Assembly (NCBI RefSeq): GCF_004122145.1
Contig: NZ_SBKQ01000005.1
Span: forward strand, 1 to 64,000
Direction of reading: 5' to 3'
From: Flavobacterium piscinae
Lineage (GTDB): Bacteria; Bacteroidota; Bacteroidia; Flavobacteriales; Flavobacteriaceae
Length of the DNA: 64,000 nt
In this document: one piece after another, positions 3,711 to 14,822 of the stretch
How positions within the stretch are numbered: the stretch's first letter is position 1
Layout of the letters: each line of letters begins with the position of its first letter
Notes under the pieces: generated by a model
The model's input: the letters and a program-made list of their open reading frames with translations, nothing else
What the model was told of the DNA's origin: nothing
Database searches by the model: none
Position numbers and translations under genes: made by a program

Positions 3711-5225
3711 CTAAAACTGAAAATAAATAAATGGCTGCGGACCGGCAGAAGCAGTGGCATACACAATCCAATACACAAAAGCCAACACAATGGCTTTACC
3801 AACCAAAGGCGTGGCATCAAATCCTTTTTGGAGTAGTTTGATGATATTGTTGGGTAGAAAATGCCATATAAAACCAATCGCAATCAATAAAAACACATTT
3901 TGATAGCCTTGAGCAATAATCAACCATTGCTGAGGATTAAAAGTCATCTCACCAATGTTAAACATGATTTCAAAGGCGGTATGAAAATCTTTCGCTCTAA
4001 AAAACAACCAACAAAACGCCACAAAATGAAAGGTTAAAAAGACTTGAATCGTTCTAACGAAATAGTTTTTGGGCAACTTAATGAACATCCCAAAATAGCG
4101 TTCAACCGCTAAAGCTAATCCGTGTAAAACGCCCCAAAACACAAACTTCCAGGAAGCTCCGTGCCACAAACCACCTAACAGCATCGTGAGGAATAAATTG
4201 ACATACGTTCTGAACTTCCCTTTTCGATTACCGCCTAAAGAAATGTATAAATAATCCCGTAACCAAGACGATAATGAAATATGCCAGCGTCGCCAAAACT
4301 CCGTTACCGATGTGGATTGATAAGGTGTTCTGAAATTCGGTGGCAACCAAAAACCCATCAATAACGCCAACCCAATCGCCATATCAGAATATCCGGAAAA
4401 GTCACAATAGATTTGAATGGCATAGCCATACGAGGCCATTAAGTTTTCAAAGGAAGTATAACTATTTGGTGCATCAAAAACCCGGTCGACAAAGTTGATG
4501 GAAATATAATCGGAAATCACCGCCTTTTTCAACAAACCACCAATAATCAAAAACAAAGCGGTATTGAATTCTTCTTTCGTCAAATTGAGACGCTTATAGA
4601 TTTGCGGAATAAAATCACTGGCTCTCACAATCGGACCCGCCACTAACTGCGGAAAGAACGAAACGAAAAACAGAAAATCCATGAAGCTCTTGGTAGGTTC
4701 CAATTCCTTTCGATACACATCAATCGTATAACTCAGCGTTTGAAAGGTATAAAAGGAAATCCCAACAGGAAGAATAATATCTTGAAACTCAAAATTTCGA
4801 TCGAACAGTAAATTGGTATTGTCAATAAAAAAGTTGGTGTATTTAAAATAGCCCAACAATCCTAAATTGACCACCAAACTGACAACAAGATAAAACCTTC
4901 GATAGAAATTATCTTCTTCCTCATAAATCAATTTGGCAATCACATAATCCAGCACCGAAGAAAAAATAATCAACAAAAAGAAAATCCCACTTGATTTATA
5001 ATAGAAAAAAAGTGAAAAAGCCACCACATAGGCAATGCGAAGCCGGTGCGTTTTTTGCGTCAGAATATAAAAGAAATAAAAGACAAGAAATAATCCTAAA
5101 AACAATGCACTGTTAAACAAAAGCGGTTTTTGAATGTCAAACACAAACCAACTTTCCACCTGTTCCCAAGTGATTGTTCCAATGTTCTGATCAATCCATT
5201 GATTGAAATTAAAAAGCGGTATCAC
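3711..5225 (-). CDS. MBOAT-family O-acyltransferase (AlgI/DltB-like)
   Basis: This polytopic membrane enzyme (504 aa, about 11 hydrophobic segments) should move acyl, probably acetyl, groups across the cytoplasmic membrane to an envelope polymer. Diagnostic MBOAT sequence is present: LPVGISFYTFQTLSYTIDVY near 152-171, FFPQLVAGPI at 190-199, DFSGYSDMAIG at 275-285, WRRWHISLSSW at 311-321 and GGLWHGAS at 351-358, with the conserved histidine at 355. Length matches the family. It begins with GTG overlapping the upstream stop as GTGA (5222-5225), so translation is coupled. It is the last gene of a three-gene leftward operon with two SGNH hydrolases, the usual partners of MBOAT enzymes in O-acetylation. 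The polymer is not proven by sequence; see the LysM domain in the neighbour. Confidence 0.9.
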   Translation of the reverse strand: MIPLFNFNQWIDQNIGTITWEQVESWFVFDIQKPLLFNSALFLGLFLVFYFFYILTQKTHRLRIAYVVAFSLFFYYKSSGIFFLLIIFSSVLDYVIAKLIYEEEDNFYRRFYLVVSLVVNLGLLGYFKYTNFFIDNTNLLFDRNFEFQDIILPVGISFYTFQTLSYTIDVYRKELEPTKSFMDFLFFVSFFPQLVAGPIVRASDFIPQIYKRLNLTKEEFNTALFLIIGGLLKKAVISDYISINFVDRVFDAPNSYTSFENLMASYGYAIQIYCDFSGYSDMAIGLALLMGFWLPPNFRTPYQSTSVTEFWRRWHISLSSWLRDYLYISLGGNRKGKFRTYVNLFLTMLLGGLWHGASWKFVFWGVLHGLALAVERYFGMFIKLPKNYFVRTIQVFLTFHFVAFCWLFFRAKDFHTAFEIMFNIGEMTFNPQQWLIIAQGYQNVFLLIAIGFIWHFLPNNIIKLLQKGFDATPLVGKAIVLAFVYWIVYATASAGPQPFIYFQF

Positions 5226-6628
5226 TTGCCTGTTTCAGTGTTATAATTTTGTAAAGCTTCTAAAAATGCGTCCGTTAACAATTGTCCTTGTTTTTCGTAG
5301 CCTGCTTTGGTGTAATGCACTCGATCGGCACCAATCAAACCTTCTTTTACCATTTGATTAATGCCAAAAAGACCTCCAAAATGGGCAAACATATCCCAAA
5401 CAGCATAATTTCTCAACTCCGCTTGAGCCAAAATTTCTTTGGTATAATCTGCCACAAACGTATTGGGAAACTTTCGTTTAAATTGTGAAGGCGGCGGAGT
5501 GGTAATTAAAATAGTAACGGAAGGATTTTGGTTGACAATGGTTTCCATCATCAGACTCAATTGCAGGAAATAATCGGCAGTCACTAATTTATCAAAACTT
5601 TCATTGGTTCCCAAAGAAATGATGACCAAATCAGGAGTCAAAGTTTTTAGTTGCTCAAAAAACAAAGGAAACTTGTTATAGTCAGAACTTTTTGCACCGT
5701 TTACACCAATCGTATGGTAAATAATACCCGGACTATTGTTTTCCAATACCAAACCATTTAAAGCAAAATCAGTTTGTTCGAGAGCCGGAATCAGATAGAT
5801 TTTATGTAAAAGCGAATCAGAGGCAAACGAATGAAAACCTTCCTCTCGCAAGGTCTCTATCGGAATAAATTCAGAACGTTCTACCACTTTTTTTTCCATC
5901 TGATTGGATGGAATTTTGAGTGTTTTCCCGGCTCTGATGTTGTTGCTTTTTAAGCTATTTGCCGATTTGATGGATTTGATTGTTACATTATATTTATCGG
6001 CAATAACCGACAAACTCTCACCGTTTCTAATTTTATGCACGATTTTTTTCGGAATATCCGATTCTAATTGAATGATTTTGGAAGCCAACGCCACGTCAAA
6101 CATTTTTTGATTGTTGGGCGTAAAGATTTTCAGTTTAGAAAAACCGCTTTCTTTGGTTTTTACATTCATTTCCAAGGCAAAATCCTTGTTTTTTGTCCAC
6201 AAAGCTATACCACTTAACCCCACAGGATTACCATTATCTGCATAAATGTTTCGCTGACTTTCCCAGGCTTCATTAGAAGAAAATCGTATATCACCGGGTC
6301 CGTTTGTTTTGGCTAAATTATATGGAAAAACAAATCCGCGACCGCCATCGCCAAACTGTTGTTGTAAGTTCTGACGAAATTTACCGGAGAAAAAATCCGC
6401 TTGAATGTGCGAATCACCAATGTGCACGATATTGATTTTCCCACTTTTATCCGCTTGTATTCTATTAATCTTTTCAAAAAGGGGATGTAAGGCTTTTTTA
6501 TTAGTGATTTCATTCACAGCAATTTCAACGGCAGTGGTATCCACTACCACATAGAGCGAATCAGTCTGAGCAGCCACGTTGAAATGCAGTAAACCAACCA
6601 AAAGAAAACAAAGGATTTTATTGAACAT
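5222..6628 (-). CDS. SGNH/GDSL hydrolase-like protein with inserted LysM domain
   Basis: A signal peptide (residues 1-21, ending AAQ) places this 468-residue protein outside the cytoplasmic membrane. SGNH blocks are visible: IVHIGDSH at 67-74 (nucleophile Ser73), GVNGA at 308-312, LGTNES with Asn342, and DRVHY with Asp435 and His438, so the esterase/acyltransferase site looks intact. Between blocks I and II, residues about 197-240 form a LysM domain (HKIRNGESLS, then ADKYNVT, then IRAGKTLKIPS), a peptidoglycan-binding module. It overlaps the upstream SGNH gene by 11 nt and the downstream MBOAT gene by 4 nt. I infer that it acetylates or deacetylates peptidoglycan or a glycan close to it, in the manner of PatB beside PatA. 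Confidence 0.88.
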   Translation of the reverse strand: MFNKILCFLLVGLLHFNVAAQTDSLYVVVDTTAVEIAVNEITNKKALHPLFEKINRIQADKSGKINIVHIGDSHIQADFFSGKFRQNLQQQFGDGGRGFVFPYNLAKTNGPGDIRFSSNEAWESQRNIYADNGNPVGLSGIALWTKNKDFALEMNVKTKESGFSKLKIFTPNNQKMFDVALASKIIQLESDIPKKIVHKIRNGESLSVIADKYNVTIKSIKSANSLKSNNIRAGKTLKIPSNQMEKKVVERSEFIPIETLREEGFHSFASDSLLHKIYLIPALEQTDFALNGLVLENNSPGIIYHTIGVNGAKSSDYNKFPLFFEQLKTLTPDLVIISLGTNESFDKLVTADYFLQLSLMMETIVNQNPSVTILITTPPPSQFKRKFPNTFVADYTKEILAQAELRNYAVWDMFAHFGGLFGINQMVKEGLIGADRVHYTKAGYEKQGQLLTDAFLEALQNYNTETGK

Positions 6629-8099
6629 TCGAGGGAGTCGTTTTAGATGAAACGGAATCTACTGCCGCTTGATTAGGTACTGTTTTTCTATTTTTTCGCA
6701 TTTCTTTGTATTGAGTATACCCGGTTTGAATTTGTTGATACAACAAACCGGCCACTTTTTGTGCTCCTTTGTAATTAAAATGAGTATAATCTTTGGCTGC
6801 TAAGGCAGGAACTTCCTCTTCCACCCATTTAGTCATCGATCCGTCTCCACCCATTGCTTCAAACAAATTGAAATAACCGGCTTTGGATTGCACGGCATAT
6901 TTCCGTTGAGCCATGGTTAACGGAATTACTGCTGAGTCAGTTTTCATTTCCAAATCGTATTTGGTGGCTTTGTCTGCCGTTGAAATCACCAAAACGGTTA
7001 CGCCCGGAAAACAAGCTTTCAAATGATTCACTACACGCGTCATGCTTCGTTCGTACCAATCGTAGTTGTAGGAACCATAATTCAGTACATTCGTTCCGTA
7101 ATGCAAAATGATTAAATCATAGTCAAATCGCTCCTGAAACTCGTTCATCAATTTCACATTAAACGTAGAAATCGGCAAACCGGAATTTCCTCGATTGGAA
7201 AAATTATCTACATGTACCCCTTTCCCATCATCAAAATTAAAGCCATAAATCGGAATTGAATCGGCTTTGTGAAAAGACGCTTTAAAACTTTTTAAGGCTG
7301 TATTGGAAATTGCTAACGTGTTGAGCAACTTCTCCGGACTTAGTTTTTTTACAATAGTGTCTTTTCCGGTTTTGACAATAAGTTCCCCTTCTTGATTATC
7401 AGAATTGCCATAAAACAAAGTGGGATTATTCAGTTGAGAAGTATGCACACCTTGCCCGGCTTTGTAATTCACCCACGGATTGGAAAGGGTATCATTCGCA
7501 AAAAACACATGCCCGTTTACACCAAAGGGTTTGAGAGGTCGTTTCACGTTAAGATAAGACTGTGTTTTCCAATTACCGGAATAGTGATGAGAAATAGAAC
7601 TTCTTGAACCGGCCGATTCAGAAGTAATGGAAACAAAACCCACTCCTTTTCCTCCGTATTTTGATTGCATTGCACTTCTGAAGTCTTGCACAATCAAGTC
7701 ACCATCCGTCATGGAATCACCAAAATAAGCAATGCGGATATCTCCTTTTTGTTCGGTTTCCAACAAATATAATTTTTCGAAGAACGGAATTAAAAACTGA
7801 AAACCTTTGTATTGTTCGTACTCTTCCGGTGGAAAAGCGATGCCTTCAATTTGTTCAAAGACAATTTTCTTTCTTTTAAATGTATCTAGTGCAATTTGAG
7901 CAGTGCTATCCATTTTTTCATCCAACGCGACGGCTTCTAATAAAACACTGTCTACCACCACATTTTTCGATGCGGACTGCGATTCTGAAAAAATACGTTT
8001 TGGTAATACTTCTTTCAAAAACAGAAAGCAGAAAGCAGAAATAAAAATCACTGCCAGCGTTTGAAAAAAATAAGAAATTTTATTGCCCACAACTATCAA
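6618..8099 (-). CDS. Membrane-anchored SGNH hydrolase-like protein
   Basis: A single hydrophobic helix (residues about 9-28) should anchor this 493-residue protein with its bulk in the periplasm. SGNH motifs are IAYFGDSM with Ser129, HYGTN with Asn337, and KDYTHF with Asp437 and His440. The C-terminal tail is basic, then serine/threonine-rich. It is first in the operon and overlaps the LysM-SGNH gene by 11 nt. No ATG lies near the start: TTG at 8099 or GTG at 8090 are the options. The promoter at 8110-8143 predicts transcription starting near 8104, which leaves a more normal leader for GTG. Its likely role is one of two extracytoplasmic acyl-transfer partners of the MBOAT enzyme. Confidence 0.85.
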   Translation of the reverse strand: MIVVGNKISYFFQTLAVIFISAFCFLFLKEVLPKRIFSESQSASKNVVVDSVLLEAVALDEKMDSTAQIALDTFKRKKIVFEQIEGIAFPPEEYEQYKGFQFLIPFFEKLYLLETEQKGDIRIAYFGDSMTDGDLIVQDFRSAMQSKYGGKGVGFVSITSESAGSRSSISHHYSGNWKTQSYLNVKRPLKPFGVNGHVFFANDTLSNPWVNYKAGQGVHTSQLNNPTLFYGNSDNQEGELIVKTGKDTIVKKLSPEKLLNTLAISNTALKSFKASFHKADSIPIYGFNFDDGKGVHVDNFSNRGNSGLPISTFNVKLMNEFQERFDYDLIILHYGTNVLNYGSYNYDWYERSMTRVVNHLKACFPGVTVLVISTADKATKYDLEMKTDSAVIPLTMAQRKYAVQSKAGYFNLFEAMGGDGSMTKWVEEEVPALAAKDYTHFNYKGAQKVAGLLYQQIQTGYTQYKEMRKNRKTVPNQAAVDSVSSKTTPSNVQ

Positions 8100-8109
8100 A
8101 AATAGAGTG

Positions 8110-8143
8110 CAAATGTATTAAATTCAAATCTAAATAAAACAAA
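8110..8143 (-). promoter_or_regulatory. Predicted Bacteroidota promoter for the SGNH-MBOAT operon
   Basis: On the minus strand TACATTTG (8117-8110) is an exact match to the TAnnTTTG -7 box, with TTTG (8143-8140) 22 bp upstream as a -33 box. It lies 11 bases before the first possible start codon, so the leader is very short. The -33 box touches the argS terminator. Confidence 0.55.
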
Positions 8144-8171
8144 AAAGACAGCCTAACTTTGACTGTCTTTT
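8143..8171 (-). terminator. Terminator of argS
   Basis: AAAAGACAG at 8143-8151 and CTGTCTTTT at 8163-8171 form a 9-bp stem with an 11-nt loop. On the minus strand the stem is followed by T-rich DNA, just past the argS stop at 8193. It separates argS from the acetylation operon, although both run leftward. Confidence 0.75.
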
Positions 8172-8192: not shown

Positions 8193-9980
8193 TTACATGC
8201 GTTCCGGCACTTCTATTCCCAATAAAGAGAAGGCTGACTTGATGGTTTCGCCCACTTTTTTGGAGAGTTGCACACGGAATTTTTTCAATTGCTCATCCGT
8301 TTCCGGTAAAATTGGTACTGTTTGATAAAAAGAATTGTATTCTTTCACCAATTCGTACGTATAATTGGCCACCAAAGCCGGACTAAACGATTGTGCCGCA
8401 TGTTGAATGAGTTCCGGGTAGGATTCTAATAACTTTATCAGTTCTTTTTCTTTGGGATGCAAGGTTATTGCAGCTATTTCAGTAGAAAAATCAAAGTCGG
8501 CCTTTCGTAAAATCGATTGAATTCGAGCATACGTATATTGAATAAACGGGCCTGTATTTCCGGCAAAATCAACAGACTCCTCCGGATTAAAGAGCATTGA
8601 TTTCTTAGGATCCACTTTCAACATAAAATACTTTAACGCTCCCAATCCGATGATTTTATACAATCGTTGTTTTTCATCTTCGGAATAACCGTCTAATTTT
8701 CCTAATTCTTGAGAAATTTTAGCGGCGGTTTCGGTCATTTCTTCCATTAAATCGTCAGCATCCACCACAGTTCCTTCACGAGATTTCATTTTTCCGGATG
8801 GCAATTCGACCATTCCATACGACAAATGATATAAATTTTCTGCCCAATCAAAACCGAGCTTTTTCAGGATTAGAAACAATACTTTAAAATGATAATCTTG
8901 TTCATTTCCAACCGTATACACCATTCCGCCCACATCGGGAAAATCTTTGACCCGTTGAATGGCGGTACCAATGTCTTGCGTCATATACACAGCTGTTCCA
9001 TCCGAACGAAGTACAATTTTTCGGTCTAAACCGTCTTCGGTTAAATCAATCCACACTGAACCGTCAGGGTCTTTCTCGAAGATGCCTTTTTCCAAACCGA
9101 ATTGAACCACTTCTTTTCCTAACAAATACGTATTGGATTCGTAATAATAACTGTCAAAATCGACTCCTAAGTTTTTATAGGTTGCATTAAAACCGTCATA
9201 CACCCATTGGTTCATGGTTTTCCAAAGTTCGATGACTTCGGGTTTACCGGCTTCCCAATCAAGGAGCATTTGTTGAGCTTCTTGAATGATAGGAGCATTT
9301 TTTTTAGCTTCTTCTTCGGTTTGACCTTTTCCGATTAATTCATTAATTTCGGATTTGTATTGTTTATCAAAAGCAACATAATAATTCCCAACCAATTTAT
9401 CACCTTTTAAACCGGTTGACTCTGGAGTTTCATTCTTATTTGATTTTTTCCAAGCCAACATCGATTTGCAAATATGAATTCCGCGATCGTTAATGATTTG
9501 GGTTTTATAGACTTTTTTACCGGACGCTTTGATGATTTCGGCTACCGAAAAACCTAATAAATTATTACGAATGTGTCCTAAATGCAGTGGCTTGTTAGTG
9601 TTTGGTGAAGAGTATTCGACCATCACCGCTTTTTCAGCTTGGTTTTGTGGAACAAATCCATAAGAAGCATCATTTTTTATGGAAGAAAAGAATTGGATGT
9701 AATATGTATCGCTAATCACAATATTTAAAAAACCGGAAACCACGTTAAATTTTTCAACAACTTTAACATGGTCAACAAGATAGGTTCCAATTTTATTGCC
9801 TATCTCTGCCGGATTCCCTTTGATTAATTTCAATAGCGGAAAAACAACTACCGTGACATCACCTTCAAAATCCTTTCGGGTAGACTGAAATTCTATTTTT
9901 TCGATTTCAATTTCAAATACTTGCAGAATAGCTTTTTGAATGGAGGAATATAAAATATTTTCTAAGTTCATTTTATTCAT
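8193..9980 (-). CDS. argS: Arginyl-tRNA synthetase
   Basis: This is a class I aminoacyl-tRNA synthetase that charges tRNA-Arg in the cytoplasm. The 595-residue length is normal. The N-terminal additional domain spans roughly 1-110, followed by SSPNTNKPLHLGHIRNN with the HIGH-type signature HLGH at 133-136. The KMSKS-equivalent loop is GKMKSREGT around 396-404, and the anticodon-binding DALR domain occupies about 470-595. Two Met codons are close together (9980 and 9971); the first is kept, because the predicted -7 box TATCTTTG lies 10 bases upstream of it. It has its own terminator and appears monocistronic. Identification is secure. Confidence 0.97.
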   Translation of the reverse strand: MNKMNLENILYSSIQKAILQVFEIEIEKIEFQSTRKDFEGDVTVVVFPLLKLIKGNPAEIGNKIGTYLVDHVKVVEKFNVVSGFLNIVISDTYYIQFFSSIKNDASYGFVPQNQAEKAVMVEYSSPNTNKPLHLGHIRNNLLGFSVAEIIKASGKKVYKTQIINDRGIHICKSMLAWKKSNKNETPESTGLKGDKLVGNYYVAFDKQYKSEINELIGKGQTEEEAKKNAPIIQEAQQMLLDWEAGKPEVIELWKTMNQWVYDGFNATYKNLGVDFDSYYYESNTYLLGKEVVQFGLEKGIFEKDPDGSVWIDLTEDGLDRKIVLRSDGTAVYMTQDIGTAIQRVKDFPDVGGMVYTVGNEQDYHFKVLFLILKKLGFDWAENLYHLSYGMVELPSGKMKSREGTVVDADDLMEEMTETAAKISQELGKLDGYSEDEKQRLYKIIGLGALKYFMLKVDPKKSMLFNPEESVDFAGNTGPFIQYTYARIQSILRKADFDFSTEIAAITLHPKEKELIKLLESYPELIQHAAQSFSPALVANYTYELVKEYNSFYQTVPILPETDEQLKKFRVQLSKKVGETIKSAFSLLGIEVPERM

Positions 9981-10101: not shown

Positions 10102-10229
10102 TAAGTATTTTATACAACTATATTACATTTTTATGCATTTCATCGATTTTATTTGCATTTTATCGATGAATATCATTTTATTTGCAGAGTCAAAATTCAA
10201 CTTATTCTTGTTCACCCAAATTTAATAAC

Positions 10230-13200
10230 ATGAAAACGAAATTACTTAACTTCCTGCTACTGCTTCCGCTTGTATGTTTTTCACAAGCGATAACGGTTAA
10301 CACAACAACTTATACTGTACCAGAATTAGTAACCAATGTATTAGTAAGTTCCCCTTGTTTGGACGTAACTAATGTTAATTGGAGTACAGGATCAAATTTT
10401 GGTTCTTCTAACGGAATTGGTTACTTTCAAAATACCAATCCAAATTTTCCAATGCAAAGTGGTGTTATTTTGAGTACCGGAAATGTTTCAAATGCACCGG
10501 GTCCAAATAACTCAATGTTGAATGATGGATTAACTACTTGGCCTGGTGATAATGATTTAGAAGTCATTCTTGCCAATGCCGGCATTTCTATGACCTCAAC
10601 AAACGCAACGGTTTTAGAATTTAATTTTACAGCCTTGTCTCCTCATTTTGATTTTGATTTTCTATTTGCCTCTGAGGAATATGGTAATTTTCAGTGTCAG
10701 TTTTCTGATGCCTTTGCATTTCTATTAACAAATTTGAATACTGGAGTAACAACAAATTTAGCTGTAATTCCGGGTACAAACACCCCTATATCTGTAGTTA
10801 CGGTAAGGGATTTTTTATATAACTCATCATGTCCATCCTCAAATGCTGAATATTTTGGTACATTCAATGGTGGAGCCAATGCAAATTTATCACCAATAAA
10901 CTTTAACGGTCAAACTGTTGTAATGAATGCATCTGCAGTTTTAACTCCCAATACGCCATATAAAATTAAATTGGTGGTTGCGGATAGAATTGACCCACAA
11001 TCTGACTCTGCTATATTCCTTTCTGCCAATAGTTTTAATATAGGCCAAAATGTCTTAGGAGAAGATTTAACATTAGCCTCTAATACAGCTTTATGTGATG
11101 GAGAATCTCATGTGATAAATACCGGTTTAAATCCTAGTGAATATACATTCATTTGGAAAAGAAATGGAGTAATTCTTCCTGCAGAAACAGGTGCCAGTTT
11201 AACAGTTACAGAATCCGGAATCTATGAATTAACCTATTCTAACAATGCGTTTCCATGTCAAACTATAACTGATTCCGTACTTGTGGAATTCAATGGCGTT
11301 TTTAACACTCCCAATCCTATTGACATTCTAAAGTGTGATACAGGAGCTGGAACCTATTCATTCAATCTGGCAATTAACACACCAATTGTAACTGCCGGAT
11401 TAAACCCAAATACAGTTGTATCTTATCATTCATCAGAAGCACAGGCTCATGCAAATACCAGTCCATTAGCGAATGTGATCAACAGCACGGGAAATCAAAC
11501 TGTTTATGTTCGAATCAAAAAACATGACGGGGATTGTTATGTGGTTAAATCTTTTCAACTTTTGGTAACGGACCCACCGATAGTAAATCAAATAGCGGAT
11601 ATTGTTTCCTGCGAACATTTAACAATTCAAGACAAAGCATGGTTTGTTTTTGCACAATCTACTATCAATGCTGTATTGGGAGACCAAAATCCAGCCAATT
11701 TTGTAGTAACCATACACAGAACTCAGGAACAAGCAACAAATGGAACCAACGCAATTGGAGGAAACCAAATATTTACCGTTTCTACTACAGTATATGTACG
11801 TGTGCAAAATGCAACTGACTCATCATGTTTCTCAATTGCTCCAATAAATTTAGTAGTTCAACAACTTCCTGATGTGGATAGTTTTGAAGACGTAATTGTT
11901 TGTGAAAGCTACACCTTGGAGGAAATTACAAATGGTGAATATTATACTGGCCCTAATGGAACCGGAGAACAAAAATTTGCAGGGGATGTTATCACTGAAA
12001 CACAACGAATCTATATTTACAATACGCTACCTACTGAACCTTCTTGTCCGAATGAAAGCAGCTTTTTAGTAACAATTATTGATCCGGATGATATTTCATT
12101 AGGTGATGGACAATATTGTAACAGCTATACACTGCCAACATTGACTTTTGGACAATATTTTACAGGTGAAAACGGAACAGGTACAGAACTTTTTCCGGGG
12201 ATGTCTATTACAACCTCTCAAACTGTTCATCTCTATTATTTATCACCGGAGCCACCTTTTTGTGCTATTGACTTAGGTTTTGATGTTGAAATCATTCCAT
12301 CTCCTGAAGTTGATTCATTACCAACGGTTTTTGATTGTACTGCGTATACGTTGCCAAATTTATCAAATGGTACTTATTATGATGCTGCCAATGGTATGGG
12401 AAATGAGATAGCTCCCGGTACTGTTATTACGGAAACACAAACCATTTATATTTATGCACAAAACGGCATTTGTACAAATCAATCGAGCTTTACTGTTTTT
12501 ATTGGATTAGAAGCTCCAACCTCTACAACCGAATGTGTGAGTTACACCTTACCATCTTTAGCGATTGGAGGGTATTTTACTGAACCAAATGGAGGTGGAC
12601 AACAAATTCCAGCCGGAACAGTTATCAATTCGACACAAACCATCTATGTTTACGCAGAGAGTCAATCAAGTCCAAACTGTACCGATAACTTGAACTTCAC
12701 CATTACCATTTCGTTACCGGTGATTGAAACCCCGGATGTAACTTCTGCCTGTGAGACATACGTTTTACCATCAATTCCGCTAGGTAATTATTTTACTGGG
12801 GAAAATGGTACAGGAACACAATTAACTGAAGGAACAGTAATTGAAGAATCACAAACCATTTATATTTACTTAAATAATGGTCAAGGTTGTCAAAATTCAG
12901 TGAGTTTTGAAGTAACTGTACTTTCACCACCAAAAATTGATTCCAGATCTGATATCGATGGTTGTAATAATTATGTTTTAACAGATTTAGAACTTGGTAA
13001 CTATTTTACCGGTCCAAATGGAACAGGTACAATGTTACAAGGTGGAGATGTAATTACTAATTCACAAGTTATCTATATTTATGCAGAAGAAAATGGATGT
13101 TCTGCTGAAACAAGTTTCCAAATTAATGTATTTGAAATTCAAGCTGATTCATTAGAGGATGTTCAAGTATGTGATAGTTATATTTTACCAACTTTAACAA

Positions 13201-14822
13201 GCGGTAACTTATATTACACTGCTATCGACGGACCAAATGGTTTTGGTACATTATTAGCACCTGGTACACCAATAACATCAACTCAAACTATTTACATTTA
13301 TAAAGAAAATCAAATTCGTCCAGCCTTTTCTTGTATTGATCAAACTTCATTTACAGTTACTGTATATGAAACACCGGATATTGCTCCAATTGCTAATGTT
13401 AACGTATGTAATTCCTATGTTTTACCTGCATTGTCGGTTGGGAATTATTTCACTGAACCAAATGGTGGCGGGACGCAACTCGCAGAAGGAACAGAATTAA
13501 CCGTTTCACAAACACTCTATGTTTATGCTGAAACAGGTACTAATCCGAATTGTTTTGACCAAGAAATATTTACAGTGACAATTTTTAATGTGGATGAAGT
13601 AGAAGATGTTACTATTTGTTCTAGTTATGAACTTCCAACTTTAACAACAGGAAGATATTATAATGGTCCGAATGGAACAGGAGGTCAATTGGCTTTTGGT
13701 AGTTCAATTACAACTTCTCAAACGGTTTATATTTTTGCTCAATCAGGCTTCTCTCCAAACTGTTCAGATGAAAGCTCGTTTGAAGTTACCATTGTACCTA
13801 CTCCGGTTGCAAATGCTGTTCCGGTTGCAAACAGAACAGTTTGTGAAGAGGACGGTACAAATGATGGAGTAACTAGTTTTGATTTGAATAGCCTAAACAG
13901 TATTGTTTTAGGAACACAAACCGGTGCAGAATTTACTGTTGCTTATTATCCAACTTTGGCTGATGCAACTGAAGGAATAAATTCAATTACGGATACAACT
14001 TTATCAACTGTTTATGTAAGAGTAAATAACTCGCTTGCACCGAATTGTTTTGACATACTTCCAATCACGTTTATTGTACATAAAATTCCTGAACCAACTC
14101 CCATAGGTGGAATTGTTTGTGTGGAAAGTGAAACAGGAAATTTATTGAACCCGTTTACAATTGTAAGTGGATTATCCTCCTCAACACACACCTTTGAATG
14201 GTATTTGGATACAACGTTAATTGATGGAGCTACAGGAAGCACTCTTCAAGTTACCGAACCCGGAATCTATAGTGTAATAGCCACCAGCAATGCGACAGGC
14301 TGTTCCTCTGAACCTACTGAAGTAACTGTGGTTGCTTCTGAACCGGCTGCCATAGGCTTTACTGTAAGCATGGCGTTTAGTTCTACTAATTCGATTACCA
14401 TTAATGCTACCGGTGTAGGAGGAAATTATGAATATTCATTAGATGGTGGTCCGTTTCAAGATAGTCCAACGTTTGATAATGTTTCTTCTGGAACTCATAT
14501 AGTAACCGTAAGAGATAAAAATGGTTGTGGAAGTGTAACCGATGAAGTATTGGTTATTAATTATCCTAAATTCTTTACGCCAAACGGTGATGGTCATAAC
14601 GAAACATGGAATATTGTTGATTTAGAAGAACAGCTAAATGCAGTAATCTACATCTACGATCGCTATGGAAAATTACTGTCTCAAATTTACCCATCAAAAA
14701 ATGGTTGGGACGGATACTATAATGGTGCAGCCATGCCATCAACTGATTACTGGTTTACAGTAACTTATGAAGAAAATAATCAAACCAAAGAGTTTAAATC
14801 TCACTTTTCATTAAAGAGATAG
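10230..14822 (+). CDS. Giant T9SS type B adhesin with nine Cys-containing repeats
   Basis: The start is ATG 10230, because MKTKLLNFLLLLPLVCFSQA is a clear signal peptide; the frame extends upstream to a TTG but that would bury the signal. The product is 1530 aa. Residues about 20-272 match the choice-of-anchor L domain (FDFLFASEEYGNF). An Ig-like module and two roughly 90-residue modules follow to about 548. Nine tandem repeats of about 70-80 residues then run from about 558 to 1190, each beginning C-x-[SNT]-Y-x-L and containing NGxG and QTIYIYA-type strands; many carry a second Cys in PNC. Ig-like and SprB-like modules precede a gliding-motility-associated type B sorting domain (YPKFFTPNGDG at about 1446 to the end). 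It is probably exported by the T9SS and held at the cell surface for adhesion. Confidence 0.88.
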   Translation: MKTKLLNFLLLLPLVCFSQAITVNTTTYTVPELVTNVLVSSPCLDVTNVNWSTGSNFGSSNGIGYFQNTNPNFPMQSGVILSTGNVSNAPGPNNSMLNDGLTTWPGDNDLEVILANAGISMTSTNATVLEFNFTALSPHFDFDFLFASEEYGNFQCQFSDAFAFLLTNLNTGVTTNLAVIPGTNTPISVVTVRDFLYNSSCPSSNAEYFGTFNGGANANLSPINFNGQTVVMNASAVLTPNTPYKIKLVVADRIDPQSDSAIFLSANSFNIGQNVLGEDLTLASNTALCDGESHVINTGLNPSEYTFIWKRNGVILPAETGASLTVTESGIYELTYSNNAFPCQTITDSVLVEFNGVFNTPNPIDILKCDTGAGTYSFNLAINTPIVTAGLNPNTVVSYHSSEAQAHANTSPLANVINSTGNQTVYVRIKKHDGDCYVVKSFQLLVTDPPIVNQIADIVSCEHLTIQDKAWFVFAQSTINAVLGDQNPANFVVTIHRTQEQATNGTNAIGGNQIFTVSTTVYVRVQNATDSSCFSIAPINLVVQQLPDVDSFEDVIVCESYTLEEITNGEYYTGPNGTGEQKFAGDVITETQRIYIYNTLPTEPSCPNESSFLVTIIDPDDISLGDGQYCNSYTLPTLTFGQYFTGENGTGTELFPGMSITTSQTVHLYYLSPEPPFCAIDLGFDVEIIPSPEVDSLPTVFDCTAYTLPNLSNGTYYDAANGMGNEIAPGTVITETQTIYIYAQNGICTNQSSFTVFIGLEAPTSTTECVSYTLPSLAIGGYFTEPNGGGQQIPAGTVINSTQTIYVYAESQSSPNCTDNLNFTITISLPVIETPDVTSACETYVLPSIPLGNYFTGENGTGTQLTEGTVIEESQTIYIYLNNGQGCQNSVSFEVTVLSPPKIDSRSDIDGCNNYVLTDLELGNYFTGPNGTGTMLQGGDVITNSQVIYIYAEENGCSAETSFQINVFEIQADSLEDVQVCDSYILPTLTSGNLYYTAIDGPNGFGTLLAPGTPITSTQTIYIYKENQIRPAFSCIDQTSFTVTVYETPDIAPIANVNVCNSYVLPALSVGNYFTEPNGGGTQLAEGTELTVSQTLYVYAETGTNPNCFDQEIFTVTIFNVDEVEDVTICSSYELPTLTTGRYYNGPNGTGGQLAFGSSITTSQTVYIFAQSGFSPNCSDESSFEVTIVPTPVANAVPVANRTVCEEDGTNDGVTSFDLNSLNSIVLGTQTGAEFTVAYYPTLADATEGINSITDTTLSTVYVRVNNSLAPNCFDILPITFIVHKIPEPTPIGGIVCVESETGNLLNPFTIVSGLSSSTHTFEWYLDTTLIDGATGSTLQVTEPGIYSVIATSNATGCSSEPTEVTVVASEPAAIGFTVSMAFSSTNSITINATGVGGNYEYSLDGGPFQDSPTFDNVSSGTHIVTVRDKNGCGSVTDEVLVINYPKFFTPNGDGHNETWNIVDLEEQLNAVIYIYDRYGKLLSQIYPSKNGWDGYYNGAAMPSTDYWFTVTYEENNQTKEFKSHFSLKR

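What the first reader, a model, noticed from the sequence alone, without database searches (positions are those of the whole stretch)
3711..8143. Three-gene SGNH-SGNH(LysM)-MBOAT operon: a predicted peptidoglycan-directed O-acetylation system
Two SGNH-fold proteins and one MBOAT acyltransferase overlap by 11 and 4 nt behind one predicted promoter. The second SGNH protein carries a LysM domain inserted between its catalytic blocks. PatA/PatB and AlgI/AlgJ/AlgX are known MBOAT-SGNH systems, but I do not recall LysM lodged inside an SGNH fold as a described part of them. LysM points to peptidoglycan, possibly a flavobacterial form of the PatA/PatB pathway with two SGNH partners.
Basis: partly seen in the sequence, partly recalled or inferred. 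Interest (0 to 1): 0.7.

Follow-up and report, generated by a model that had tools for sequence, protein, structure and literature searches.

The report
Cell-wall acetylation operon with LysM esterase
This Flavobacterium operon looks like a version of a known gene set for adding and removing acetyl groups on the bacterial cell wall, in which one of the two enzymes has an extra wall-gripping LysM module built into it.

Summary
The three-gene operon is real and accurately described, but not new as a kind. Gene order and domains match the O-acetylpeptidoglycan (OAP) cluster ape1b-ape1c-pat reported in 2005 for Bacteroides and Porphyromonas; the two Bacteroides species assayed had 27-69% O-acetylated peptidoglycan (PMC1199599). 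Both SGNH proteins match peptidoglycan O-acetylesterase Ape1 over its two-domain length (Z 36.0 and 29.1), far above PatB (15.4 and 11.2). No PatB (DUF459) passes the curated cut-off in 61 genomes of the genus. What appears new: the LysM is a clean insertion in the second SGNH protein, between two strands of the Ape1-like binding domain, which itself interrupts the SGNH fold. The cluster, with the LysM, is in 12 of 24 genus genomes sampled. Two further wall links exist elsewhere in the phylum: a separate, C-terminal LysM attachment, and in two genomes a LysM, lytic-transglycosylase-like gene overlapping the operon by 4 nt. Best reading: MBOAT plus the membrane-anchored first SGNH protein write O-acetyl groups on peptidoglycan; the LysM-SGNH protein is a wall-tethered eraser. 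The transferase/esterase assignment is inference. By-product: elsewhere in the phylum the first SGNH family sits in Dlt-like ligase/carrier/MBOAT loci.

The parts
6618..8099 (-). SGNH1 (Ape1b position): N-terminal membrane anchor (helix 10-36), SGNH domain with inserted beta-sandwich; triad S129/D437/H440, invariant R303-G304; proposed acetyltransferase partner of the MBOAT
5222..6628 (-). SGNH2 (Ape1c position) with LysM: Ape1-like two-domain SGNH protein, triad S73/D435/H438; proposed wall-tethered O-acetylpeptidoglycan esterase
5909..6037 (-). LysM domain, residues 198-240 of SGNH2, beta-alpha-alpha-beta, between strands 183-193 and 244-254 of the inserted beta-sandwich
3711..5225 (-). MBOAT acyltransferase (Pat/PatA-like), FWRRWH at residue 310 and C-terminal FIYFQF
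3714..3731 (-). C-terminal FIYFQF hexapeptide, fits the FXYXXF acyl-tyrosine shuttle motif
8110..8142 (-). candidate promoter TTG-N22-TACATTTG (motif recalled; not tested)
8143..8171 (-). terminator-like hairpin between upstream argS and the operon

Best explanation
A Flavobacterium form of the Bacteroidota OAP cluster. The MBOAT takes acetyl from acetyl-CoA and loads the tyrosine of its C-terminal FIYFQF; the membrane-anchored SGNH1 takes the acetyl on Ser129 and puts it on MurNAc O-6 of peptidoglycan, doing PatB's job with an Ape1-type scaffold. SGNH2, exported, carries the Ape1 architecture plus a LysM that holds it on the sacculus, and removes the acetyl groups again, for instance so that lytic transglycosylases can act. 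Shown here: genes, domains, predicted folds, catalytic residues, conservation, no PatB over cut-off. Inferred: acetyl as the acyl group, peptidoglycan as substrate in this organism, SGNH1 as transferase and SGNH2 as esterase.
For: SGNH2 model (pLDDT 90.0, pTM 0.81) aligns to Ape1 4k3u at Z 36.0, 2.5 A over 334 of 350 residues; best non-Ape1 entry 18.7, PatB 15.4. SGNH1 model (pLDDT 75.0, weaker) aligns to Ape1 at Z 29.1, 3.6 A, 339 of 349; best non-Ape1 entry 12.2, PatB 11.2. Profiles: 4k3u 1.8e-46 (SGNH2, list to E 0.01) and 2.4e-38 (SGNH1, list to E 1), with no PatB entry in either list. Same order ape1b-ape1c-pat in Bacteroides and P. gingivalis, with 69.4% and 27.0% O-acetylation measured in B. 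fragilis and B. thetaiotaomicron (PMC1199599). FIYFQF fits the FXYXXF shuttle shown for PatA; Tyr at -4 in 63 of 63 survey MBOATs. SGNH1 as the MBOAT's partner: of 80 survey loci, 60 have an MBOAT within 6 kb of SGNH1, 29 of them without SGNH2, against one locus with SGNH2 and MBOAT but no SGNH1 beside them; 19 of 19 loci of one spacing class hold a ligase-sized and a carrier-sized ORF in the gap, a Dlt-like set in which SGNH1 fills the DltD place. Strong N-terminal hydrophobic segment in 79 of 79 SGNH1, 17 of 79 SGNH2 (window plus 78 loci, two with short SGNH1 dropped). Wall links: Pfam LysM in 34 of 55 SGNH2 rows; SLT+LysM gene overlapping SGNH1 by 4 nt in L149 and L151 (the SLT match is over its cut-off in L149 and just under it in L151), and in Neisseria the lytic transglycosylase LtgA forms a complex with Ape1 (PMC7083599 passages). 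No OatA-type alternative seen in the own genome: five AT3 matches in frames of 328-414 aa and no AT3-linked SGNH family match.
Against: No chemistry or genetics in any Flavobacterium was found. SGNH1 keeps block II glycines (G304, G307; 48 of 48), whereas PatB has Ser or Asn in place of the block II Gly, proposed as a transferase mark. SGNH1's closest fold is an esterase. 17 of 80 survey loci have SGNH1 with neither MBOAT nor SGNH2 nearby and 2 have SGNH1-SGNH2 without MBOAT (some lie at contig ends). My signal-peptide pattern did not separate the two proteins (57 of 79 SGNH1, 40 of 79 SGNH2). 9 of 55 SGNH2 rows have a DUF459 (PatB family) match, best 2.9e-8. Only 12 of 24 genus genomes hold the cluster, so it is dispensable. 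The 2005 link to peptidoglycan is correlation, not knock-out. One review (PMC11382707 passage) puts Bacteroidota with users of OatA/OatB-type enzymes and Pat enzymes in other phyla.
Confidence: 0.6

Rival explanations
1. Both SGNH proteins are transferases in a relay, somewhat as with AlgJ/AlgX for alginate: SGNH1 takes acetyl from the MBOAT and hands it to the LysM protein, which places it on mature peptidoglycan.
For: Two periplasmic SGNH O-acetyltransferases with one MBOAT is the alginate arrangement (PMC9487903 passages); both triads intact; PatB lacks a wall-binding domain and LysM could supply one.
Against: SGNH2 matches esterase Ape1 end to end; SGNH1 with MBOAT occurs without SGNH2 in 29 of 80 loci, so no relay partner is needed there.
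Confidence: 0.17
2. The operon acetylates another envelope polymer (capsule, exopolysaccharide or lipopolysaccharide) and LysM only places the enzyme in the periplasm.
For: MBOAT-SGNH pairs also act on alginate, cellulose and secondary wall polymers; the own genome has two more MBOATs with FIYFQF; SGNH1 relatives occur in Dlt-like loci.
Against: Neighbours looked at are not polysaccharide genes: full-length argS in 35 of 80 loci, HmuY and SRP54 genes beside F. johnsoniae L067; most other neighbours were not identified. Ape1 architecture, LysM twice over, and lytic-transglycosylase-like neighbours point to peptidoglycan.
Confidence: 0.15
3. Roles reversed: SGNH2-LysM is the transferase and SGNH1 a membrane-held esterase.
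For: SGNH2 has hydrophobic Val437 before the catalytic His, as in the PatB wall (Ile/Val); some SGNH2 homologues match DUF459.
Against: That Val is also in Ape1 (alignment); SGNH1, not SGNH2, is the usual neighbour of the MBOAT.
Confidence: 0.08

Closest known systems
OAP cluster ape1b-ape1c-pat of Bacteroides and Porphyromonas (Weadge 2005, PMC1199599)
   Same: Gene order, two SGNH proteins plus MBOAT, FWRRWH motif, no ape2/patB in the cluster
   Different: Ape1c of that paper lacks the ~100-aa segment after motif I; here the second protein has it, and a LysM within it
Ape1, peptidoglycan O-acetylesterase of N. meningitidis and C. jejuni (4k3u, 8gkd, 8gld)
   Same: SGNH fold interrupted by a carbohydrate-binding module; triad; GDSH; block II NGA (SGNH2)
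   Different: LysM inserted in that module (SGNH2); membrane anchor, GDSM and invariant Arg303 (SGNH1); two copies, and no PatB over cut-off
PatA/PatB of N. gonorrhoeae and C. jejuni (PMC12148441)
   Same: MBOAT with C-terminal FXYXXF working with a periplasmic SGNH protein
   Different: No DUF459 protein over cut-off; the SGNH partners are of Ape1 type
Dlt teichoic-acid D-alanylation system
   Same: MBOAT-SGNH logic; a Dlt-like ligase-carrier-MBOAT set is found with SGNH1 relatives elsewhere in the phylum
   Different: No ligase or carrier gene within the Flavobacterium operon; DltB model matched below its cut-off (173.7 of 375 bits)

Membership tests
OAP cluster, ape1b-ape1c-pat type (PMC1199599) | Order ape1b, ape1c, pat on one strand | tested here: met
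   80 of 80 loci; order
OAP cluster, ape1b-ape1c-pat type (PMC1199599) | Pat is an MBOAT with FW(R/N)RWH | tested here: met
   FWRRWH at residue 310, MBOAT; motif
OAP cluster, ape1b-ape1c-pat type (PMC1199599) | Second protein lacks the ~100-aa segment after motif I (Ape1c definition) | tested here: not met
   SGNH2 has the segment plus LysM; the segment is lacking in L154, L155 and L178 (59-82 residues from block I to block III)
OAP cluster, ape1b-ape1c-pat type (PMC1199599) | Producer has O-acetylated peptidoglycan | not testable with these tools
   needs chemistry on this organism
Ape1 family 1 | Motif I GDS(H/F) | tested here: inconclusive
   SGNH2 GDSH, met; SGNH1 GDSM, not met (F in 4 and H in 0 of 48 rows)
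Ape1 family 1 | Motif VII Dx(V/T)H | tested here: met
   SGNH2 DRVH, SGNH1 DYTH
Ape1 family 1 | Binding module inserted in the SGNH fold | tested here: met
   whole-length matches to 4k3u; module described
Ape1 family 1 | O-acetylpeptidoglycan esterase activity | not testable with these tools
   needs enzyme assay
PatA | C-terminal FXYXXF | tested here: met
   FIYFQF
PatB (DUF459) | DUF459 match over cut-off | tested here: not met
   neither SGNH protein matches at E 0.1; 0 of 61 genus genomes over cut-off
PatB (DUF459) | Block II Gly replaced by Ser or Asn | tested here: inconclusive
   block II glycines kept in both, but the exact residue match was not superposed
OatA (AT3 fused to SGNH) | AT3 domain fused to SGNH domain | tested here: not met
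   the operon has MBOAT, not AT3; own genome: AT3 frames of 328-414 aa only and no PF19040 match
LysM | Pfam match over cut-off and beta-alpha-alpha-beta fold | tested here: met

The most novel reading that the evidence does not exclude
Bacteroidota O-acetylate peptidoglycan without PatB: an Ape1-type esterase was duplicated and one copy (SGNH1) became the MBOAT-fed transferase, the other stayed an esterase and in Flavobacterium was pinned to the sacculus by a LysM grown into its binding module. The same SGNH1 family also serves Dlt-like ligase-carrier-MBOAT systems in other classes of the phylum.
Probability: 0.5. Interest if true: 0.65.

Novelty: new variant of a known kind. Interest (0 to 1): 0.47.

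Why it matters
Peptidoglycan O-acetylation controls lysozyme resistance and lytic transglycosylases, and Bacteroides are reported to be rich in it, but the listings of my paper searches showed no paper that tests their transferase. If the reading holds, proteins labelled Ape1b (an esterase name) in Bacteroidota are transferases, and the operon shows how an eraser enzyme can be tethered to its substrate. Both are directly testable in a laboratory Flavobacterium.

Tried and rejected
PatA/PatB membership: rejected, no DUF459 over cut-off in 61 genus genomes (five genomes with sub-threshold matches, best 24.3 bits, none in the own genome). OatA-type fused enzyme in the own genome: not seen. DltB equivalog: far below cut-off. 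LysM as a chance or degenerate match: rejected. LysM as a general part of this protein: rejected; 21 of 55 aligned SGNH2 rows have no Pfam LysM, one of them (L138) with a degenerate LysM-like stretch. My signal-peptide pattern did not discriminate. My AMP-binding pattern matched none of the ligase-sized ORFs; only the L156 ORFs were checked with Pfam. My WHG pattern for the MBOAT histidine matched 55 of 63 survey MBOATs. A LysM profile of my own found LysM in 81 of 81 SGNH2 of the window and the 80 loci, but it was built from 34 rows of alignment A2, most of them from that same set, so I rest on Pfam. The survey left out the other 11 genus genomes with SGNH1, two further strong SGNH1 hits (G197, a second one in G531) and G496, whose only hit is its SGNH2; several of the 80 loci come from the same genomes. 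AlgX, AlgJ and DltD do not appear among the structure rows shown, which does not exclude them. Paper searches for Flavobacterium or Bacteroides O-acetylation genes gave only the 2005 cluster paper, reviews and papers on other organisms or subjects, as far as the listings show.
Full report
What is there. On the minus strand, downstream of argS (8193-9980), lie SGNH1 (6618-8099), SGNH2 with LysM (5222-6628) and an MBOAT (3711-5225), overlapping by 11 and 4 nt. Pfam confirms GDSL_2, LysM at 198-240 and MBOAT. A terminator-like hairpin (8171-8143) separates argS from a plausible but untested Bacteroidota-type promoter (8142-8110; motif recalled). The named relatives returned are Flavobacterium, Flavobacteriaceae or unclassified Bacteroidetes; this is how I place the window.

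Conservation. The best 80 relatives kept by the scan (of 549 confirmed in a capped list) have all three genes, co-directional, in 80 of 80, with MBOAT C-terminus FIYFQF in 80 of 80; median spacings are -8 and 1 nt. SGNH1 is short in L026 and L052. The scan used a LysM-containing profile, so this is not a frequency. Less biased samples: 17 of 149 family genomes match SGNH2 at 1e-20, of which 6 (own included) span the LysM; I aligned 4 of the other 11 and none has it. In a sample of 395 genomes of the phylum, 78 match the SGNH1 profile (one, G496, only through its SGNH2); 12 of 24 genus genomes do, and the same 12 have SGNH2 matched through the LysM.

Structure. SGNH2 was modelled with an alignment of 46 sequences from the window and named loci: pLDDT 90.0, pTM 0.81. 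The LysM is strand 196-199, helices 206-213 and 217-223, strand 236-239, and sits between long strands 183-193 and 244-254. Its best matches are the Ape1 peptidoglycan O-acetylesterases: Foldseek E 2e-22; Z 36.0, 2.5 A, 334 of 350 residues for 4k3u. The next non-Ape1 entry has Z 18.7, PatB 15.4. Ape1 is known to carry its binding module inside the SGNH domain (PMC9487903, passages). So the LysM is nested: LysM inside the module inside the SGNH fold. SGNH1 (30 sequences) gave a weaker model (pLDDT 75.0, pTM 0.74) with a membrane helix at 10-36, yet again Ape1 over the whole length: Z 29.1, 3.6 A, 339 of 349; next 12.2, PatB 11.2. Sequence profiles agree.

Known precedent. Weadge and colleagues (PMC1199599; I read parts 1-3 of 6, the figures and tables section and passages) described OAP clusters and wrote that ape1b genes start the cluster, followed by ape1c and then pat (Zymomonas excepted), with Bacteroides fragilis, B. 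thetaiotaomicron and Porphyromonas gingivalis as the ape1b/ape1c species. They measured 69.4% and 27.0% O-acetylation in the two Bacteroides. This is the order seen here. In that scheme Ape1c lacks a ~100-residue segment; the Flavobacterium second protein has it, with a LysM inside, so it fails the strict Ape1c definition while standing in its place. Three genomes of one unnamed family (f11) carry a cluster in this order whose second protein lacks the segment: 59-82 residues separate blocks I and III in L154, L155 and L178.

Who writes and who erases. PatB is DUF459; 0 of 61 genus genomes have it over cut-off. The own genome has no match to the AT3-linked SGNH family and only short AT3 frames, so no OatA-type enzyme was seen either. 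Hence one of the two Ape1-type proteins should be the transferase, if the MBOAT works as PatA does (acetyl on the Tyr of FXYXXF, then to the SGNH serine; PMC12148441, abstract, Results parts 1-2 of 3 and Discussion read). I favour SGNH1: it has a strong N-terminal hydrophobic segment in 79 of 79 (SGNH2 17 of 79). Among 80 survey loci, taken from hits to the SGNH1 or SGNH2 profiles, an MBOAT lies within 6 kb of SGNH1 in 60, with no SGNH2 in 29 of these; the reverse, SGNH2 and MBOAT without SGNH1 beside them, is seen once (L147; the genome's SGNH1 hit is elsewhere on that contig). In 17 loci SGNH1 stands with neither, and in 2 with SGNH2 only. SGNH1 has an Arg before the block II Gly in 48 of 48; the position that I match to it by eye in SGNH2 is mostly Ile or Val. 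Against this: SGNH1 keeps its block II glycines, unlike PatB. The role split is inference at about 0.6-0.7.

Why peptidoglycan. Besides Ape1 likeness and the 2005 correlation, three observations point there. First, the LysM itself: 34 of 34 rows with it fall together on the tree (91/93, under the 95 mark; midpoint root), and 8 of its positions are invariant in 46 sequences. Second, in two genomes of one genus (L153, L210) the SGNH2 homologue carries two LysM repeats at its C-terminus instead (profile; Pfam for L153): a separate attachment by position and tree. Third, in two genomes of different families (L149, L151) a gene for an SLT+LysM, lytic-transglycosylase-like protein overlaps SGNH1 by 4 nt, making a four-gene operon (SLT 38.6 bits in L149, 20.5 in L151 against a cut-off of 21.3; LysM strong in both). 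Lytic transglycosylases are blocked by O-acetylation, and in N. meningitidis LtgA forms a complex with Ape1 (PMC7083599, passages). That is 2 of 80 loci, so suggestive only.

By-product. In 19 of 19 survey loci where SGNH1 and MBOAT lie 1.9-2.3 kb apart, the gap holds a 565-586-aa ORF and a 76-81-aa ORF with a GWDS(L/I) motif. In the one locus checked (L156) these are an AMP-binding ligase (1.9e-49) and a PP-binding carrier (6.3e-6). With the MBOAT this is a Dlt-like acylation set with an Ape1b-type SGNH in the DltD place. One paper search on this listed one paper, on AT3 proteins; I did not open it.

Verdict. Novelty of the LysM insertion rests on two paper searches, whose listings and the passages that I opened show no such description in the library held.

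Noticed in passing
L156:5232-10202 and 18 further loci: Dlt-like locus in other classes of the phylum: SGNH1-family protein, AMP-binding ligase, 77-aa carrier protein with GWDSLNHI, MBOAT ending FIYFQF. Gap contents of this size found in 19 of 19 loci; Pfam-checked in one.
   Followed up: partly
L149:3055-9071; L151:5443-11232: Four-gene operon: SLT-like plus two-LysM protein overlapping SGNH1 by 4 nt, then SGNH2 and MBOAT (SLT just under cut-off in L151).
   Followed up: partly
L153:5192-7375; L210:8642-10825: SGNH2 homologue of 727 aa with two C-terminal LysM repeats (515-557, 611-656) and MBOAT ending FVYIEF.
   Followed up: partly
L142, L143, L183, L191, L192, L197-L199, L202, L208: Rearranged cluster SGNH1-MBOAT-SGNH2 with MBOAT C-terminus PIYLQF (Tyr kept) in one family (f18).
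   Followed up: no
L106:1165-2580 and L107:1108-2544 (own genome, contigs C7 and C12): Two more MBOATs with FIYFQF C-termini in the same genome; one neighbour of L107 weakly matches DUF1574 (18.4 bits, under cut-off), which PMC9487903 lists among SGNH families, so these may be other polymer acylation loci.
   Followed up: no
L014, L016, L018, L024, L144-L147, L150-L152: SGNH2 relatives without LysM in which block I reads GGSH instead of GDSH (Gly in 11 of 55 aligned SGNH2 rows at that position).
   Followed up: no
window 10182-14822: 1546-aa repetitive secreted protein whose C-terminus looks like a type IX secretion sorting domain (by eye, recalled; no search made).
   Followed up: no
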